This document shows positions 15,742 to 51,047 of a stretch of 64,000 nt of DNA, piece after piece. A program made the translations under genes and the position numbers. This stretch comes from Nocardiopsis ansamitocini (GTDB taxonomy: Bacteria; Actinomycetota; Actinomycetes; Streptosporangiales; Streptosporangiaceae), in contig NZ_BSQG01000005.1 in assembly GCF_030268225.1 (NCBI RefSeq), positions 124,001 to 188,000 on the forward strand, written 5' to 3'. Every line of letters begins with the position of its first letter. Position 1 is the first letter of the stretch. The notes under the pieces were generated by a model that saw nothing but the letters and a program-made list of their open reading frames with translations, did not search any database and was not told where the DNA came from.

Positions 15742-16515
15742 ATGTCTGAGGCCGCAACCGAGCAGAGGATCGCCGTGATCACCGGAGCCAGCAGCGGGAT
15801 CGGCGCAGCCAGTGCCCGCCGCTTGGCCGAGGCCGGTTACCTGGTGATCCTGGCTGCCCGACGTGTCGAGCGTATCGGTGCCCTGGCCGAAGAGCTGCGG
15901 GGGGCCGGTCTTGCCGCACGGGCACACTCCCTGGACGTGACCGATGCCGCCTCGGTGCGCGACTTCGCCGCCGGCCTGGAGCGGGTGGACGTCCTGATCA
16001 ACAACGCCGGCGGGGCAATCGGCACGGACACCGTGGAAAACGGCGACCCCGCCGAATGGCAGGCGATGTACGACGTGAACGTCGTGGGGGTCCTGCGTGT
16101 GACCCAGGCGCTGCTGCCGAAGCTGCGCGCGAGCGGCGACGGAACGGTGCTGGTGATGTCGTCGACCGCCGCGCTGACGCCCTACGAGAACGGCGGCGGT
16201 TACGTGGCGGCCAAGCACGGGGCGCACGTGATCGCCGAGACGCTGCGTCTGGAGCTGTGCGGCGAACCGATCCGGGTGATCGAGATCGCGCCGGGCATGG
16301 TCCGCACCGAGGAGTTCGCGTTGAACCGCTTCCACGGTGACGCCGACCGGGCCGCCTCGGTCTACGCGGGCGTGCCCCAACCACTGACCGCCGAGGACGT
16401 GGCCGACACCGTGGCCTGGACCGTGACCCGCCCACCGCACGTCAACATCGACCTGCTGGTGGTACGGCCCCGGGCCCAGGCCTCCAACCACAAGGTGTAC
16501 CGCGAGACAAAGTAG
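15742..16515 (+). CDS. SDR-family NAD(P)-dependent oxidoreductase
   Basis: A 257-residue classical short-chain dehydrogenase. The Rossmann dinucleotide motif is TGASSGIG near residues 14-21, then NNAGG near 88, the catalytic Ser in VMSSTAAL, and YVAAKHG with the catalytic Tyr and Lys near 155-159. The pattern resembles YdfG-like serine/3-hydroxy acid dehydrogenases, but the substrate is not fixed by sequence. The ATG at 15742 has GGAGG about nine bases upstream. The gene is alone, convergent with the P450 gene 20 bases downstream, and preceded by a structured leader. Confidence 0.9.
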   Translation: MSEAATEQRIAVITGASSGIGAASARRLAEAGYLVILAARRVERIGALAEELRGAGLAARAHSLDVTDAASVRDFAAGLERVDVLINNAGGAIGTDTVENGDPAEWQAMYDVNVVGVLRVTQALLPKLRASGDGTVLVMSSTAALTPYENGGGYVAAKHGAHVIAETLRLELCGEPIRVIEIAPGMVRTEEFALNRFHGDADRAASVYAGVPQPLTAEDVADTVAWTVTRPPHVNIDLLVVRPRAQASNHKVYRETK

Positions 16516-16535: not shown

Positions 16536-18071
16536 TCAGTCGGCGTGGTCGCGACGCCAGCGGGCGAGCAGGAGCTCCAGCGGATCGGCCTCCGGCTCCG
16601 GGGGGCGGGCTGCCGGAGCCTGGTAACGGGCCCCCGTGGCCCGCACCCGCACCGGGGCGGGCGCGCGGGGGGAAGCGGCGGGGCCTGCCTGCTGGGGCTG
16701 TGCCCTATCCCGGTCGGGGGCCCCGTAACGAGCGCCCTGGGCGCGAGGGGTCCGCGCCGGGGGAAACATTCGACGGATTCCCTTGCGCGCAGGAACCGGG
16801 GCCGGTCGGGTGGCCGCGGGCCTGCGTTCCGGGGCGAAGGCCACCGGCAGCTCGACGAGTCCGTGTACCGACAGCGATCCGCGCCGGCGCAGCGTCTCCG
16901 GTGCGCCGGTGAGCGTCAGGTCGCCGAGTCGGGAGATGAGCACGTCGATGGCGGTGATGGTGATCTCGCGGGCCAGGCTCTGGGCGGGACAGCCGTGCGG
17001 GCCCGCCCCCCACATCAGGTGGGCGCGGTTGCCGGCGAGGGCGTCGATACCGTCCTCGCGTCCGGGCGGACGGGTCGCGGGGTCGGCGTGCGCGGGTGCG
17101 AACCCCAACAGCAGTGCGTCCCCCTCCTTGATCTCGGCGTCGCCGATGCGCACGTCGAGGGTGGGGTAACGGCCCGCGAGGGTCTGGAGCGGCGGATCGA
17201 CCCACATGACGTAGTCGATGAAGTCGGCCGCCGGCAATGCCGCCCCGCGGTAGGCGACCGCGATCTCGGAGTCGCCCAGGAGGCGGTGCAGGGCGTTGCC
17301 GATGAGGTGGGTGGTGGGTTCGTGACCGGCTCCGACCATCAGCAGCAACTCGTCCACCGCTTCGGTGTCGCTGAGCGCGGCGGGATGGGCAAGGAGCGTG
17401 GAGACGAAGTCTCCACCCGGTTTGTCCCGGCGCCGGCGCACCAGCGCGGTGAAGTAGTCGCGGATGTCGTCGGCCGCCCGTTCTGCGACGGCCGCGTCGC
17501 CGTCCCGGCGGTTGGCGGTCAGGTCGGCGAGCAGGCGGCCGTGCTCGTCGGAGAGGCCGAAAAGGCGGTTGAGGACGAGTACGGGCAGCGGGGCCGCGTA
17601 GTCGGCGATCAGATCGGCGTTCCCTTCGCCCGCGAACCCGTCGATGAGTGCGTGGGCCAGGCGTTCGATGGCGGCGCCCAGCGCGGGGCCCGTGACCGCG
17701 GCCAGCCCCTCGACGATGGGGGCGCGCAGGCGTCGGTGGCCGGCTCCGTCACCGGCCAGCGATCCGGTGCGCGGGCCGGGGACGTTTCCCAGGCCGCCCT
17801 CCCGGGCCTGACGCCAGTGACGGGGGTCGGTGGAAAAGCGCGCGGGATCGCGCAGCACGTTGAGGTTCTCGTGGTAACCCAGCAGCAGCCAGCCGGGGAC
17901 TCCCGGAGTGATCTCGACCGGGGCGACCGCGCCGAACCGGGTCCGCAGTTCCTCCCAGAGGGAGGCATGGTCGGAGTGCTGGAGGTCTTTGTAGAGGGGC
18001 ACTGCCTGGTCGTGCACCGGGCAGCGCGGGGAAGGGCTACCGGGCGTGGGACGGGACTGACCGTTGTTCAC
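16536..18071 (-). CDS. Aberrant cytochrome P450 (CYP157-like) with a proline-rich C-terminal tail
   Basis: A 511-residue protein whose first 410 residues are a bacterial P450. The I-helix has GAGHEPTT (247-254). The heme loop is WGAGPHGCPA with the heme ligand Cys361. The invariant K-helix ExxR is missing: the aligned segment reads DYVMW (286-290), so both the Glu and the Arg are replaced. This and the GHEPT motif are features of the CYP157 type found in Streptomyces conservons, where EQSLW replaces ExxR. Residues 412-511 form a Pro/Arg-rich tail with two ARYxAP repeats and a terminal helix LELLLARWRRDHAD, not normal in P450s. No ferredoxin or conservon genes lie next to it. Confidence 0.85.
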   Translation of the reverse strand: MNNGQSRPTPGSPSPRCPVHDQAVPLYKDLQHSDHASLWEELRTRFGAVAPVEITPGVPGWLLLGYHENLNVLRDPARFSTDPRHWRQAREGGLGNVPGPRTGSLAGDGAGHRRLRAPIVEGLAAVTGPALGAAIERLAHALIDGFAGEGNADLIADYAAPLPVLVLNRLFGLSDEHGRLLADLTANRRDGDAAVAERAADDIRDYFTALVRRRRDKPGGDFVSTLLAHPAALSDTEAVDELLLMVGAGHEPTTHLIGNALHRLLGDSEIAVAYRGAALPAADFIDYVMWVDPPLQTLAGRYPTLDVRIGDAEIKEGDALLLGFAPAHADPATRPPGREDGIDALAGNRAHLMWGAGPHGCPAQSLAREITITAIDVLISRLGDLTLTGAPETLRRRGSLSVHGLVELPVAFAPERRPAATRPAPVPARKGIRRMFPPARTPRAQGARYGAPDRDRAQPQQAGPAASPRAPAPVRVRATGARYQAPAARPPEPEADPLELLLARWRRDHAD

Positions 18072-18404
18072 GACGGGCTCCTATGGCGGGGGTGCGGCGA
18101 AGCTTAGGCCCCGTTTGTTTCCGTCATGATTCGGTCGCCGAGAGTCGTGTTTTCGGCGCTGTCGGGCGAGCTGCGGCGATCCCGGCAAAGTCTGCACAAA
18201 GAAAGGGGATGAGCTGCGACGATACGATCCACCGAAAACAGGGTGGGATGGGCCACAATTCGAGGATCGCGACCCCCGGCGGAGCCCTCCCCGCAAGCGG
18301 TCGCGCATTGTCGCACGGTTGGGGCGCAGTCGTGTGGGGAATCCTCACACGGATCGACGCGTTACACCCACGAGACCGCAAGAGCGCCTGGAGGCATGTA
18401 CACG
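18072..18404. other. Divergent promoter region between the P450 gene and rbpA
   Basis: No gene is supported. The region contains the sigma-R-type promoter of rbpA at 18338-18363 and presumably the P450 promoter, for which I found no convincing boxes. Confidence 0.5.
18338..18363 (+). promoter_or_regulatory. Sigma-R-type promoter of rbpA
   Basis: GGAAT (18338-18342), exactly 18 bases, GTT (18361-18363), the consensus for the thiol-stress sigma factor SigR/SigH. The rbpA start is 42 bases further on. Streptomyces rbpA is known to be SigR-controlled, which supports the call. Confidence 0.85.
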
Positions 18405-18788
18405 ATGGCCGAGCGAGCACTTCGCGGAACCCGACTCGGGGCAACGAGCTACGAGAACGACCGCAATACCGACCTGGCCCCACGCCAGGAGGTCACCTAC
18501 GACTGCCCCCGGGGCCATCGCTTCTCCGTCACTTTCGCGACCGAGGCCGAGATCCCCGCGAACTGGGAATGCCGTTTCTGCGGCGATAACGCACTCATGG
18601 TCGACGGCGAGCAGCCGCAGGCGAAGAAGACCAAGCCGACCCGCACCCACTGGGACATGCTGCTGGAGCGCAGGAGCATGGAGGACCTGGAGGAGGTCCT
18701 TGCCGAGCGGCTGGAACTGCTTCGCAACCGACGCAAGGAGGAGCAGGAGCACCTGCACGCCCTGGCCAGGCAGCGCCAAAGCGCCTGA
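18405..18788 (+). CDS. rbpA: RNA polymerase-binding protein RbpA
   Basis: A 127-residue actinobacterial RNA polymerase-binding factor that stabilises holoenzymes with principal-type sigma factors and promotes open-complex formation. The family start MAERALRGTRLGA is present, then the core with YDCPRGHRF and WECRFCG (zinc-ribbon-like cysteines), the basic linker AKKTKPTRTHWDMLLERRS, and the C-terminal sigma-interacting helix DLEEVLAERLELLR. The ATG at 18405 has GGAGG ten bases upstream; the ATG at 18396 is too close to that site. Expression is probably induced by thiol-oxidative stress from the promoter just upstream. Confidence 0.97.
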   Translation: MAERALRGTRLGATSYENDRNTDLAPRQEVTYDCPRGHRFSVTFATEAEIPANWECRFCGDNALMVDGEQPQAKKTKPTRTHWDMLLERRSMEDLEEVLAERLELLRNRRKEEQEHLHALARQRQSA

Positions 18789-46689: not shown

Positions 46690-47052
46690 TTAGAGCTCCA
46701 GGTCGCCTTCGATGCGGCGAAGGGTGTGCCGTGCCAGCGCCAGGTTGGCGCGCTGGCGGTCCAGGGCCAGGTAGAGGAAGAGCGAACCGCCCGCCCTGTC
46801 CATCAGGCGGATCAGGTGGTATTGGCCGCTGAGCGTGATGAGGATGTCCTCGATGTGGTCGTCGAGGTTGATCGCCTTCAGGGCACGGGTCTTGGCCCGA
46901 ACAACCTCGGTGTTGGCCGCGGCGGCGACTTCCAGGTCGAACTGGCCGCCACCGAGGCTGCCCATGGACATCCCGCTCTCGTAGTCCACGAGGGCGACGC
47001 CGATGGCGCCTTCGATGCTCATGGCTTCTTTGAGGGTGGTTTCGATGTTCAT
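46690..47052 (-). CDS. Roadblock/LC7 domain protein 1
   Basis: A 120-residue Roadblock/LC7 fold protein: MNIETTLKEAMSIEGAIGVALVDYESG, a central helix EVAAAANTEVVRAK, strands DILITLSGQYHLIRLM, and the C-terminal helix LALDRQRANLALARHTL. Such proteins (MglB, CvnB) pair with small Ras-like GTPases or with regulatory kinases. The ATG at 47052 has GGAAG eight bases upstream. It is divergent from a second Roadblock gene of the same length and similar sequence, sharing a 185-base promoter region with GTACC repeats. No GTPase gene is nearby. Confidence 0.85.
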   Translation of the reverse strand: MNIETTLKEAMSIEGAIGVALVDYESGMSMGSLGGGQFDLEVAAAANTEVVRAKTRALKAINLDDHIEDILITLSGQYHLIRLMDRAGGSLFLYLALDRQRANLALARHTLRRIEGDLEL

Positions 47053-47074
47053 GGGGGTCTTCCTTAGTGCTGAT

Positions 47075-47208
47075 GTACCGATGGGCGAACTTGGTGCGGC
47101 AAAGTACCTGATTGTTCGGTCAGCCGAAAGGTACCCGATGGCTCCTACCAGCAAATCGTCATCTTGGAGTATTTGTTTCGCCCCAAATGCCCGTTACAGT
47201 ACCTCAAG
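47075..47208. promoter_or_regulatory. GTACC(N)GATGG repeats in the divergent Roadblock promoter
   Basis: GTACCGATGG (47075), GTACCTGATTG (47104), GTACCCGATGG (47131) and a weaker GTACCTCAAG (47199), all in the same orientation. The first three are spaced 29 and 27 bases apart. They look like operator half-sites for a shared regulator. Confidence 0.55.
47173..47200 (+). promoter_or_regulatory. Promoter of the Roadblock/PatA-like operon
   Basis: TTGTTT (47173-47178), 16 bases, TACAGT (47195-47200). The start codon is 37 bases after the -10 box. The weakest GTACC repeat overlaps the -10. Confidence 0.55.
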
Positions 47209-47237
47209 CAAGAGGCGGCAAGATTTCAGGGGGCATC

Positions 47238-47600
47238 GTGTCCATCATGGCCGCGTCCATCGAGCGTGTCCTGGACTGCCAAGGATCGCTCGCCGCGATG
47301 CTGGTCGAACGCGCCACCGGATTCGCCCACACCAGCTCCGGAGACGAGTCGGTTCTTCCCGATTCCGCAGAAGCGGCGGAAGACTTCCACCTGGCGTACG
47401 ACATCCTCGCCAGTACCCGGACCGAGACAGAGTTGGAGAGTGTCGTGGTGACCACAGCAGAACGCCACTACGTCACACAGGCCGTACCCGGCGGAAACGG
47501 GGACGACCTGCTGCTTGTGGTCGTGCTCGACCGTGCCCGCACCAACATCGCCCTGGCCGGGTACCAGATCGGCGACCACGCCAAGGCGTTGTCGGCGTGA
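47238..47600 (+). CDS. Roadblock/LC7-like protein 2
   Basis: A 120-residue paralogue of the divergent Roadblock protein: SIERVLDCQGSLAAMLVERATG, a helix EAAEDFHLAYDIL, the strand ESVVVTTAERHYVTQAV, and the C-terminal LLLVVVLDRARTNIALAGYQI, which aligns with the same segment of protein 1. The start GTG at 47238 has AGGGGG just upstream. Its stop overlaps the next gene's start (GTGA), so the two are translationally coupled and probably act together. Confidence 0.8.
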   Translation: MSIMAASIERVLDCQGSLAAMLVERATGFAHTSSGDESVLPDSAEAAEDFHLAYDILASTRTETELESVVVTTAERHYVTQAVPGGNGDDLLLVVVLDRARTNIALAGYQIGDHAKALSA

Positions 47601-48526
47601 GCACCGTCGGCTCCGAGCAGGTGCCGCACAGCCTCTCCGAGGACCTGCGACAACTACGGGACGACGCCTTCACCGGTGTCCTGCGTGTCACCGGGCCGCC
47701 CGACGCGGCGATCCACTTCTCCAAGGGGCTCGTCACCGCAGTGGAGACCCCCGCGGCCCCGGGGGCCGAGACGCTCCTGGTCAAAGCCGGACGCGTGTCG
47801 GACCAGGCGTGGACGGCGGCTTACGAGGCCGTACCAGCGAGCGGCGACCTCGCCGAGGAGCTCGTCTCGCGCGGCGTGGTCTCGGCCGGCGCACTGGAAC
47901 TGGTGTGCACCGCCGCACTGTTCGACGGCGCCTTCGCCCTCGCGTTGAGCACGTCGCCGCGGTGGACCACCGAGCCCGCCGGTTCCGGACCGACACTCGG
48001 ACTGCGCGTCGGGATCGACCCCGAGATCATGGTCGCCGAGAGCAGGCGCCGCTTCGCCCTGCTGTCGCGGAGTTGGGGCTCTCCCGGCGAGCTCGCCCGC
48101 ATCCGCCCCGCCCCGACCATCCAGCTGGGGCCGGGCAGTTCGGCGCTCCCCCCCGCCTACCGTGACCTGCTCATGCAGGCCAACGGCCGCCGAACCCCGC
48201 GTGACATCGCCTTCGTCCTGGGACGCGGAGTCTGCGCGGTCATGGCCGACACCGTGCGGATGATCGACCGCGGCCTCCTCGACGACGCCACCCGCCCCGG
48301 TCCGACCGAGGTCAGCGTCTCCCGCAGGCTTCCCGAACCCCAGACAGCGACCGAACCGGTGGGATCGCTGCCCCAACGCGCGCCCGGCTCCACCGCGGTA
48401 CGCCGCCCTCCAGACGCCGAACGCACGTCGGTGTCGTCCGAGGTACTGGCGAAGCTGCGCGCGTCGGGCTACGGCCGCCACCCCCTCGCCGGCCAGAGCA
48501 CGGCCGCCGAACCAGAGACCAACTGA
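47597..48526 (+). CDS. PatA-like (DUF4388-type) protein with winged-helix segment
   Basis: 309 residues. The N-terminal 110 match the PatA-like/DUF4388 pattern: LSEDLRQLRDDAFTGVLRVTG, AIHFSKGLVTAVETP, LLVKAGRVSDQAWTAAY, ELVSRGVVSAGALELV. A winged-helix-like segment follows near 195-245 (RTPRDIAFVLGRGVCAVMADTVRMIDRGLLDD), then a disordered tail. PatA-type domains occur in cyanobacterial and myxobacterial signalling proteins that work with Roadblock proteins. The GTG start overlaps the stop of Roadblock 2. I infer a regulator whose activity depends on the Roadblock partners; DNA binding is not proven. Confidence 0.72.
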   Translation: MSTVGSEQVPHSLSEDLRQLRDDAFTGVLRVTGPPDAAIHFSKGLVTAVETPAAPGAETLLVKAGRVSDQAWTAAYEAVPASGDLAEELVSRGVVSAGALELVCTAALFDGAFALALSTSPRWTTEPAGSGPTLGLRVGIDPEIMVAESRRRFALLSRSWGSPGELARIRPAPTIQLGPGSSALPPAYRDLLMQANGRRTPRDIAFVLGRGVCAVMADTVRMIDRGLLDDATRPGPTEVSVSRRLPEPQTATEPVGSLPQRAPGSTAVRRPPDAERTSVSSEVLAKLRASGYGRHPLAGQSTAAEPETN

Positions 48527-48527
48527 C

Positions 48528-48788
48528 GTGCCTGCCCGCGGTTGCGCCCCCATGGGGCCGGGGGCAGGGCCCGAACACGGTGCCCCACCGGCGCCGACCG
48601 CCGGACCGTCCGGGACGACTCCCGTACTGCCCAAACGCACTCCACCGTTGACGCCCCGGGGTCCCCGCCCCGGCCCCGGTCTGCTGGAACCGCCCGCACC
48701 CGAACCCGGGCCGATCGCGGCTCTGCGGCGCGCGCAGGCCGAGATCTCGCTGGAACGCGTTCGCCAGGCACTACACGACATGGACTAA
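48528..48788 (+). CDS. Small proline-rich protein with C-terminal helix
   Basis: 86 residues. The first 60 are Pro/Gly-rich and probably disordered; the last 25 (IAALRRAQAEISLERVRQALHDMD) form a clear amphipathic helix. The GTG start is one base after the upstream stop, so it depends on coupling. No family was recognised. It could be a short adaptor that docks the PatA-like protein to a Roadblock dimer; that is a guess from position only. Confidence 0.55.
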   Translation: MPARGCAPMGPGAGPEHGAPPAPTAGPSGTTPVLPKRTPPLTPRGPRPGPGLLEPPAPEPGPIAALRRAQAEISLERVRQALHDMD

Positions 48789-48843
48789 GACCCCCGCGTG
48801 CCCTGACCCCGCCCGCGCCGCACGATCAAGGAGCAAGCGACAG

Positions 48844-49221
48844 GTGAGTCAGGAAGCGATCGTCTTGGAGCTGGCGGGCCTTCGGGGCCGCGTCATGGGG
48901 GTCACCGACAGCGTCGTGTCCGCCGCGGACGGACTGCTGGTGGCATCGGACACCGACGGGGTGCAGCCCCAGTCGCTGGCGGCCCTCGCCGCGGCAGCCC
49001 TGGGCCTGGGCAAACGCACCTCCAGCGAAGTGGGTATGGGCACGCTCCGCGAGGTGGTCACCCGCTGCCAGGGAGGTTACGTGGTCATCTACGCGGTGGG
49101 CGTGGAGGCCCTGCTGGTGGTGATGGGCGACGAGGGGATGGACACCGCCACCCTGCGACGTGAATCGCGGCGCACCGTCGAACGCATCGGCGAGATCCTT
49201 GAGGTGACCCCTGCCGTTTGA
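48844..49221 (+). CDS. Roadblock/LC7 domain protein 3
   Basis: A 125-residue Roadblock protein closest to the CvnB/MglB type: VLELAGLRGRVMGVTDSVVSAADGLLVASD, the helix LAALAAAALGLGKRTSSEV, GGYVVIYAVGVEALLVVM, and the C-terminal helix LRRESRRTVERIGEIL. It is shorter at the N-terminus and differs clearly from Roadblock 1 and 2. The GTG start has AAGGAG about ten bases upstream. In conservons the CvnB gene is followed by cvnC (DUF742) and cvnD (GTPase); neither is present here. Confidence 0.85.
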   Translation: MSQEAIVLELAGLRGRVMGVTDSVVSAADGLLVASDTDGVQPQSLAALAAAALGLGKRTSSEVGMGTLREVVTRCQGGYVVIYAVGVEALLVVMGDEGMDTATLRRESRRTVERIGEILEVTPAV

Positions 49222-49294
49222 GGACGACGGGCAGCACCGTCACCTGCCCTCACCGCAAAGAACCGACACCGTTCGGTGTTTGGACGGCGGTCGC

Positions 49295-49735
49295 ATGGGG
49301 ACTTGGGAGCGCGTGCTCAGTTTTCTCCCCGGCAACGTGCACCGGCGCCTGCACGAGCTGTACCACGAACACGGCGCGCCGCTCATGGCCGCGACACACG
49401 TCGATCCACGGCTGCGGGCGGCCGTCGTCGAACGCGCCTCCGTGGTGAACGCCGACCTGTGCAGGCGTGGTGTCCGCCCGCGCTCCCGACGCTTCCGTGC
49501 GGCCGTCGTCGACCTGATCGACCGTCTCGTGGACCGCATCACGGCTCCCGGTGCCGTCCTGCCCAAGGCGGCGGAGCCGTTCTCCTGGTTCAGCCTCGAA
49601 CTCGCAGCGTTGACCGTACTCTTGGTCCACCACGGGCACCGACCGCCCAGACCGGGCGGGATGGAGTGGGCCGGCCAGGTGCCCGCAGCTACATTCCGGC
49701 GATCAGCTTCTCCACCCGCTCGTCCACCGATTTGA
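49295..49735 (+). CDS. Hypothetical protein closing the Roadblock cluster
   Basis: 146 residues, no family recognised. The first 110 look folded and mostly helical: [77 protein letters not shown]. The tail past residue 115 is low complexity and reads antisense through the end of pafA, overlapping it by 47 bases. Codon use is typical of the region. The ATG at 49295 is my choice; a TTG at 49280 is in frame. It starts 73 bases after Roadblock 3 and is probably the last gene of that operon. Confidence 0.6.
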
Positions 49736-51047
49736 AGGGGTCCTTGCACAGGACGGTGCGCTGAGCCTGGTCGTTGAGCTTGAGGTGCACCCAGTCCACC
49801 GTGAAGTCGCGCCGCTTCTCCTGCGCCTTCTTGATGAACTCCCCGCGCAGCCGTGCCCGAGTGGTCTGGGGCGGCACGGACTTGGACTCGAAGATCTTGA
49901 GGTCGCCGACCACCCGCTCCATCTGACCGCGCCGCTGCAGCAGATAGAACAGCCCGCGGTCGCGGTGGATGTCGTGGTAGGTCAGATCCAACTGGGCCAC
50001 CCGCGGGGAGGACAGGCCCAGGTTGTGCTTGGCCCGGTAGCGCTCGATGAGCTTGTACTTGGCGACCCAGTCGATCTCCCTGGCGACGAGGTCGAGATTG
50101 CCGGTCTCCACCGCCTCCAGGGTGCGCTGCCACAGCTCGAGCACCCGCTTGCCGGTGGCGTCGGTGCCGTGGCGGTCCACGTAGGTCTGTACCTTCTCCA
50201 GGTATTCGCGCTGGATCTCCAACGCGCTGGCCTCGCGCCCGTTGGCCAGGCGGACCTTGCGCCGCCCGGTCATGTCATGGCTGACCTCGCGGATGGCACG
50301 GATGGGATTTTCCAGGGTGAAGTCGCGCATGACCACGTTGGCCTCGATCATGCGCAGGACCATGTCGGTGGAGGCGAGCTTGAGCAGGGTGGTCGTCTCG
50401 CTCATGTTGGAGTCGCCCACGATCACGTGCAGCCGGCGGAACCGCTCGGCGTCGGCGTGCGGCTCGTCACGGGTGTTGATGATCGGCCGGGACCGGGTGG
50501 TCGCCGAGGAGACGCCCTCCCAGATGTGCTCGGCCCGCTGGCTGACGCAGTACAGGGCGCCGCGCGGGGTCTGCAACACCTTGCCCGCGCCGCAGATGAT
50601 CTGTCGGGTGACCAGGAACGGGATCAGGATGTCGGCGAGACGGCCGAATTCACCGTGCCGGCCCACCAGGTAGTTCTCGTGGCAGCCGTAGGAGTTCCCG
50701 GCCGAATCGGTGTTGTTCTTGAAGAGGTAGATCTCACCGGCGATGCCCTCTTCGTGCAGGCGCTGCTCGGCGTCGACCTGCAGCCCTTCCAGTATCCGCT
50801 CGCCCGCCTTGTCGTGCGCGACCAGGTCCAGCAGGCTGTCGCACTCCGGAGTTGCGTACTCCGGGTGGGAACCCACGTCCAGGTAGAGCCGCGCGCCGTT
50901 GCGCAGGAAGACGTTGCTGCTGCGTCCCCACGACACGACACGGCGGAACAGGTAGCGCGCCACCTCGTCCGGCGACAGCCGACGCTGTCCCCGGAACGTG
51001 CAGGTGACCCCGTACTCGTTCTCCAAACCGAAGATGCGACGATCCAC
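49689..51047 (-). CDS. pafA: Pup-protein ligase PafA
   Basis: A 452-residue carboxylate-amine ligase that joins the C-terminal Glu of Pup to substrate lysines. The glutamine-synthetase-like active site is visible: Glu9 in [10 protein letters not shown], the loop [19 protein letters not shown] with catalytic Asp57, [19 protein letters not shown], and the C-terminal Pup-groove part [10 protein letters not shown]. It lacks the Dop-specific loop, so it is PafA and not Dop. The start GTG at 51047 matches the family. It follows prcA after 73 bases. Confidence 0.97.

What the first reader, a model, noticed from the sequence alone, without database searches (positions are those of the whole stretch)
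16536..18071. Orphan P450 lacking the ExxR motif, with a proline-rich repeat tail
The otherwise invariant K-helix Glu and Arg are replaced (DYVMW), the heme loop is WGAGPHGCPA, and a 100-residue Pro/Arg-rich tail with two ARYxAP repeats and a terminal helix follows. CYP157-type enzymes with a lost ExxR are known from conservons, but this gene has no conservon around it. The tail could bind a partner such as a Roadblock protein or the membrane.
Basis: partly seen in the sequence, partly recalled or inferred. Interest (0 to 1): 0.6.

Follow-up and report, generated by a model that had tools for sequence, protein, structure and literature searches.

The report
ExxR-less P450 with conserved docking tail
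This is a heme-binding P450-type protein from the CYP157/CvnE lineage that has lost the usual structural salt bridge of P450s and, unlike many of its relatives, is not next to a signalling operon; its odd proline-rich tail is not an accident but carries two near-identical short motifs and an end helix kept under strong selection in nine related genomes, pointing to a still unknown binding partner.

Summary
The 511-aa minus-strand ORF (16536-18071) is a P450-fold protein whose ExxR is YVMW (within DYVMW), with the Cys ligand intact and a ~97-residue Pro/Arg-rich tail. There is no displaced ExxR and no frameshift. The ExxR loss itself is ordinary for its kin: all 34 CYP157/CvnE-like homologues collected have Trp in place of the ExxR Arg and lack the meander Arg, whereas 11 canonical P450s keep ExxR. 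Homologues occur in conservons (as CvnE), paired with a CYP154-type P450, or alone; the window gene belongs to a 'solo' clade. What is new is the tail: nine orthologues share GARYxAP - linker - GARYx(A/V)P - linker - D(P/A)L(E/D)xLLxxW, with pN/pS 0.27 in the motifs, 0.68 in the domain and 0.93 in the linkers. In six genomes the gene stays beside rbpA with a conserved upstream footprint. Most likely it is a conservon-independent, CvnE-type heme-thiolate regulator or adaptor whose tail is a bivalent docking peptide; the partner is unknown and catalysis is not excluded. It is a new variant of a known kind.

The parts
16536..18071 (-). CYP157/CvnE-like ExxR-less P450, 511 aa, GTG start
   Evidence: ORF; P450 homology to PDB chains E 1.5e-36; AF2 model pLDDT 85, CYP154C2 Z 43.8
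16830..18008 (-). P450-fold domain (about aa 22-414)
   Evidence: VIA-align range 22-413 to CYP154C2/CYP154C1
17310..17333 (-). I-helix GAGHEPTT (aa 247-254); E251 kept, T252 position is Pro
17202..17222 (-). K-helix FIDYVMW (aa 284-290); ExxR is YVMW
16983..17012 (-). heme loop WGAGPHGCPA (aa 354-363), Cys361 ligand
   Evidence: Cys and His359 invariant in 34/34
16539..16829 (-). Pro/Arg-rich tail (about aa 415-511)
16716..16736 (-). GARYxAP motif 1 (GARYGAP, aa 446-452)
   Evidence: 9/9 orthologues
16614..16634 (-). GARYxAP motif 2 (GARYQAP, aa 480-486)
   Evidence: 9/9 orthologues, Val for Ala in two
16542..16586 (-). terminal motif D(P/A)L(E/D)xLLxxW and amphipathic helix (aa 496-510)
   Evidence: 9/9 orthologues; helix 497-510 pLDDT about 95 in the full model, about 94 in the tail alone
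18101..18121 (-). upstream footprint GAAACA-N8-CCTAnnnT, probable promoter of the P450 gene
   Evidence: GAAACA and TAnnnT invariant in 6/6 syntenic orthologues
18399..18788 (+). rbpA, divergent neighbour; conserved synteny, not part of the system by function as far as known
   Evidence: Pfam RbpA 1.7e-46; synteny

Best explanation
The gene encodes a heme-thiolate protein of the CYP157/CvnE lineage that has become independent of a conservon. Shown by comparison: the P450 fold and the residues that hold heme (C-helix His112/Arg116, His359, Cys361) are kept, while the ExxR-meander triad is gone and the I-helix Thr is Pro. A tail predicted as disordered carries two GARYxAP motifs and a terminal DPL(E/D)xLLxxW helix, all under purifying selection. 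Inferred: the P450 body works mainly as a heme- or ligand-bearing sensor or adaptor rather than a standard monooxygenase, and the tail is a bivalent docking peptide that brings it to a partner encoded elsewhere, replacing the operon linkage by which CvnE proteins accompany a CvnA kinase.
For: ExxR Arg is Trp in 34/34 homologues and Arg in 11/11 canonical P450s. Meander Arg is absent in 34/34; T252-equivalent is Pro in 27/34; Cys, His359 and His112 are kept in 34/34. Conservon-linked relatives are the fifth gene after cvnA-D, and PMC13343842 proposes CvnE proteins as inputs to CvnA kinases. The GARY clade is monophyletic (100/99) and nested among solo and CYP154-paired members. Motif pN/pS 0.27 against domain 0.68 and linker 0.93. 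In L119 the P450 core has evolved fast (end branch 1.1, K-helix DRALW) yet the tail motifs are intact. Foldseek and VIA-align place the domain on CYP154.
Against: No partner was identified. GARYxAP codons occur in the own genome only in this gene plus one hit outside a clear coding frame, so no shared docking network was seen. The conservon loci of the own genome do not visibly have a CvnA waiting for a CvnE: those CvnA read in full are 677-1041 aa, large enough for a sensory part, though their domains were not scanned. Loss of ExxR and Thr does not prove loss of catalysis: P450eryF lacks the Thr and CYP152 peroxygenases have Arg-Pro there (own knowledge).
Confidence: 0.48

Rival explanations
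1. An ordinary catalytic P450 of the CYP157 family (monooxygenase or peroxide-driven) with a conserved tail that recruits its redox partner or a carrier-bound substrate.
For: Heme-binding residues and I-helix Glu251 kept; fold very close to CYP154; gene kept with a conserved promoter-like footprint.
Against: Thr252 equivalent is Pro in 8 of 9 GARY orthologues and the ExxR-meander triad is lost; I-helix residues vary among orthologues (AGHEPTT, LGVEPTA, TGYESTV, AGAAPTS); no ferredoxin or pathway genes seen beside it; annotated neighbours are SDR, RbpA, HAD and L,D-transpeptidase genes.
Confidence: 0.27
2. A helper of a CYP154-type P450 in trans, comparable in role to the P450-derived glycosyltransferase activators: the ExxR-less protein stabilises or gates its catalytic partner through the tail.
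For: In the same tail-bearing clade, seven relatives without a conservon and two with one are directly followed by a canonical CYP154-type gene, two of these pairs in the own genome.
Against: The window gene and all other GARY orthologues have no such neighbour; the NCBIfam activator model scores 81 against a cut-off of 343; activators lack the heme Cys (own knowledge), kept here.
Confidence: 0.12
3. The tail is chiefly a membrane anchor: linker plus an amphipathic terminal helix lying in the bilayer.
For: Amphipathic terminal helix above shuffled tails in most tail-bearing homologues, Trp/Arg-rich in many (LLSRVLRWWRGR, WSAWWSTGWRSGR).
Against: In the GARY clade the helix starts with DPL(E/D), has few basic residues and, in Thermobifida, ends right after the Trp; an anchor does not explain two conserved GARYxAP motifs.
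Confidence: 0.1
4. Decaying or mis-assembled gene: the K-helix loss and tail are drift or frameshift.
For: The core is fast-evolving in one orthologue (L119).
Against: Nine intact orthologues, in-frame conserved tail, purifying selection, conserved upstream element.
Confidence: 0.01

Closest known systems
CYP157 family (CYP157A EVLW, CYP157C1 EQSLW of Streptomyces; motif data in PMC3599690)
   Same: ExxR Arg replaced by Trp, Cys retained; relatives of this type are often followed by a CYP154-type gene
   Different: Both Glu and Arg replaced (Y and W); no conservon, no CYP154 partner; GARYxAP tail
CvnE, the P450 accessory protein of conservons / actinobacterial G protein systems (PMC13343842)
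   Same: Homologues at about 36-40% identity are the gene after cvnD
   Different: Not in a conservon; the conservon-linked homologues are tail-less or have tails without GARYxAP
CYP154 family (CYP154C1 1gwi, CYP154C2 9u53, CYP154C5 4j6c)
   Same: Closest solved fold, Z 43-44
   Different: ExxR, Thr252 equivalent and meander Arg present in CYP154-type partners, absent here; about 29% identity
P450-derived glycosyltransferase activators (TIGR04515)
   Same: P450-fold proteins with lost catalytic motifs; weak model match
   Different: Far below the curated cut-off; heme Cys kept here

Membership tests
Cytochrome P450 superfamily | P450 fold | tested here: met
   AF2 pLDDT 85; CYP154C2 Z 43.8 over 383 residues; phmmer 1.5e-36
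Cytochrome P450 superfamily | heme-thiolate Cys in GxHxC | tested here: met
   Cys361 in GPHGCPA, invariant in 34/34
Cytochrome P450 superfamily | ExxR in the K-helix | tested here: not met
   YVMW at the aligned positions
Cytochrome P450 superfamily | Pfam PF00067 above its gathering score | tested here: not met
   15.1 bits against 22.8; two orthologues/paralogues pass it narrowly
CYP157 | K-helix Arg replaced by Trp | tested here: met
   W290; 34/34 homologues
CYP157 | more than 40% identity to named CYP157 proteins | not tested
   No named CYP157 sequence was at hand; 44% to the own-genome EQVLW paralogue, about 36-40% to conservon-linked Streptomyces homologues
CvnE (conservon accessory P450) | gene directly follows cvnA-D | tested here: not met
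   No CvnA, CvnC or CvnD match in the window; nearest Roadblock gene 31 kb away
CvnE (conservon accessory P450) | binding to the CvnA ATPase domain (predicted in PMC13343842) | not testable with these tools
   No complex prediction available
P450-derived glycosyltransferase activator (TIGR04515) | curated model score of 343 bits | tested here: not met
   81.3 bits

The most novel reading that the evidence does not exclude
A conservon-free, trans-acting heme-thiolate pseudoenzyme that signals or scaffolds through a tandem GARYxAP + DPLxxLLxxW docking tail, i.e. a P450 body turned into a ligand-sensing adaptor with its own dedicated partner.
Probability: 0.35. Interest if true: 0.72.

Novelty: new variant of a known kind. 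Interest (0 to 1): 0.5.

Why it matters
The role of ExxR-less P450s, including conservon CvnE proteins, is an open question (PMC13343842 states that neither accessory protein type had been assessed biochemically before). A solo member with short, conserved docking motifs gives an experimental handle: a defined peptide bait for finding the partner, and clean point mutants. It also shows that in this clade purifying selection weighs more on the tail motifs than on the P450 core as a whole, as expected of a P450 scaffold used for something other than standard oxidation.

Tried and rejected
(1) Displaced ExxR: rejected by alignment with 11 canonical P450s. (2) Frameshifted tail: rejected. (3) Hidden conservon nearby: none; only a lone Roadblock gene 31 kb away. 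(4) GARYxAP as a general genomic docking motif: only this gene carries it twice in the own genome, plus one hit that lies in no clear coding frame. (5) PDB sequence match for the tail: the profile search gave only a ribosomal S7 hit at E 0.19, taken as chance. (6) Intramolecular docking of the terminal helix: it is equally confident when the tail is folded alone (pLDDT about 94), so the full model gives no evidence for docking. (7) SDR neighbour 15742-16515 as a functional partner: not found next to the orthologues. (8) Protein genome-search runs over the family or chosen handles failed on the server; the twin-motif DNA pattern was used instead, and its hit list was cut, so the count of GARY genomes in the family is a lower bound.

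Full report
Observation. The minus-strand ORF 16536-18071 encodes 511 aa from a GTG. Pfam PF00067 misses its cut-off (15.1 against 22.8 bits), but phmmer against the PDB gives P450s at 1.5e-36, and the AF2 model (pLDDT 85, 32 aligned sequences) overlays CYP154C2 and CYP154C1 at Z 43-44. The K-helix is FIDYVMW. Aligned with canonical P450s the ExxR residues are Tyr287 and Trp290.

The ExxR loss is a family trait. I collected 34 ExxR-less homologues and 11 canonical P450s. The ExxR Arg is Trp in 34/34 and Arg in 11/11; the ExxR Glu is kept in 12/34; the meander Arg that completes the triad is absent in 34/34 and present in 9/11; the I-helix Thr (P450cam T252) is Pro in 27/34 and Thr in 11/11; CxG is CxA in 30/34. 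Cys, GxHxC His and C-helix His are kept in all. This matches the literature on CYP157 (EVLW, EQSLW; PMC3599690). So the heme site is kept while the structural triad and the oxygen-activation Thr are lost together in most members. Loss of activity is inferred, not shown.

Genomic contexts. Homologues lie (a) directly after cvnA-D in conservons, for instance in Streptomyces plasmid records NZ_CP108391, NZ_CP108071 and NZ_CP108260 and in several genomes of the same GTDB family; (b) directly before a canonical CYP154-type P450 without a conservon, including two loci of the own genome, C1:665-667 kb and C11:58-60 kb (partner best match CYP154C1, 1.9e-111); (c) alone. Three of the 13 own-genome P450s found by this query lack ExxR; the other P450 ORFs read carry ExxR-like motifs, though in one or two the motif was not pinned by alignment. 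The conservons of the own genome carry no P450 in the stretches read. A 2026 paper names the conservon P450s CvnE, links them to CvnA kinases lacking an extracellular sensor, and predicts contact with the CvnA ATPase domains (PMC13343842).

Phylogeny. On a maximum-likelihood tree of the P450 domain, canonical P450s split off (100/99). The window protein sits in a clade of nine (100/99), sister to solo relatives whose tails end DPLTRLLRWW or similar (96/87). All these lie in a larger tail-bearing clade (83/82, moderate); the remaining conservon CvnE proteins are tail-less. Tail-bearing conservon members exist (L046, L057, L059, L083, L084), so a tail of some kind is older than the loss of the conservon, if the moderate branch is right. 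Named CYP156/CYP157 sequences were not at hand, so the CYP family number is by motif and context only.

The tail. The nine orthologues are the window, Actinorugispora (67%), Thermobifida cellulosilytica (62%), Marinactinospora (51%), two named Nocardiopsis (about 50%), and three unnamed family genomes. Every one carries GARYxAP, a variable linker, GARYx(A/V)P, another linker and D(P/A)L(E/D)xL(L/V)xxW; spacing between the two GARY motifs varies. Codons differ synonymously: pN/pS is 0.27 in the 24 motif columns, 0.68 in the domain and 0.93 in the linkers; amino-acid identity is 0.80, 0.55 and 0.27 (synonymous sites are near saturation, so only the contrast counts). Only 2 of 340 seven-column windows of the domain are as conserved as the first GARY motif. 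In L119 the core has diverged far (end branch 1.1, K-helix DRALW) but the tail motifs are intact. AF2 gives the linkers low confidence with no structure and the last 14 residues as a confident helix, both in the full protein and in the tail alone. This is what short linear docking motifs look like, and it refutes a frameshift.

Locus. In six genomes (window, Actinorugispora, Thermobifida, Marinactinospora, G065, G118) the gene is divergent from rbpA in an lnt-FxsA-HAD-RbpA neighbourhood (for Actinorugispora the contig ends before lnt); in the Nocardiopsis-type genomes it lies elsewhere. The rbpA side has a GGAATC...GTT element resembling a sigma-R promoter; the P450 side has an invariant GAAACA-N8-CC/CT-TAnnnT. 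The synteny most likely reflects descent; a functional link to RbpA is not claimed.

Verdict. The ExxR loss is ordinary for that kin; the conserved bivalent tail and the stable conservon-free life are the new parts. Best reading: a heme-thiolate CvnE/CYP157-type regulator or adaptor acting in trans through a docking tail (0.48), with an active, tail-recruited P450 as main rival (0.27). No literature on such a tail turned up in seven full-text searches of open-licence papers, which do not cover most subscription journals. Statements on P450eryF, CYP152 and the activators' missing Cys rest on own knowledge.

Noticed in passing
window 47003-49735: Lone Roadblock/LC7 gene (48844-49221) between an ORF without a Pfam match and the Pup ligase pafA (49689-51047 minus); a Roadblock protein outside any conservon.
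   Followed up: partly
window 18300-18400: Conserved GGAATC-N-GTT element upstream of rbpA in the window and other syntenic genomes, resembling a sigma-R-type promoter.
   Followed up: partly
L014 9078-11659 and L015 8824-11327: Two more ExxR-less P450 / CYP154-type P450 gene pairs in the same genome, overlapping or abutting, without a conservon.
   Followed up: yes
L002, L041-L045, L052-L060 C-termini: A Pro-rich linker with a Trp/Arg-rich amphipathic terminal helix is widespread in solo and CYP154-paired ExxR-less P450s, and absent in one set of conservon CvnE proteins; I found no description of it.
   Followed up: partly
L119 6568-8250: Orthologue with a fast-evolving P450 core (K-helix DRALW, altered I-helix and C-terminus) but intact tail motifs; a candidate for a tail-driven function.
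   Followed up: no
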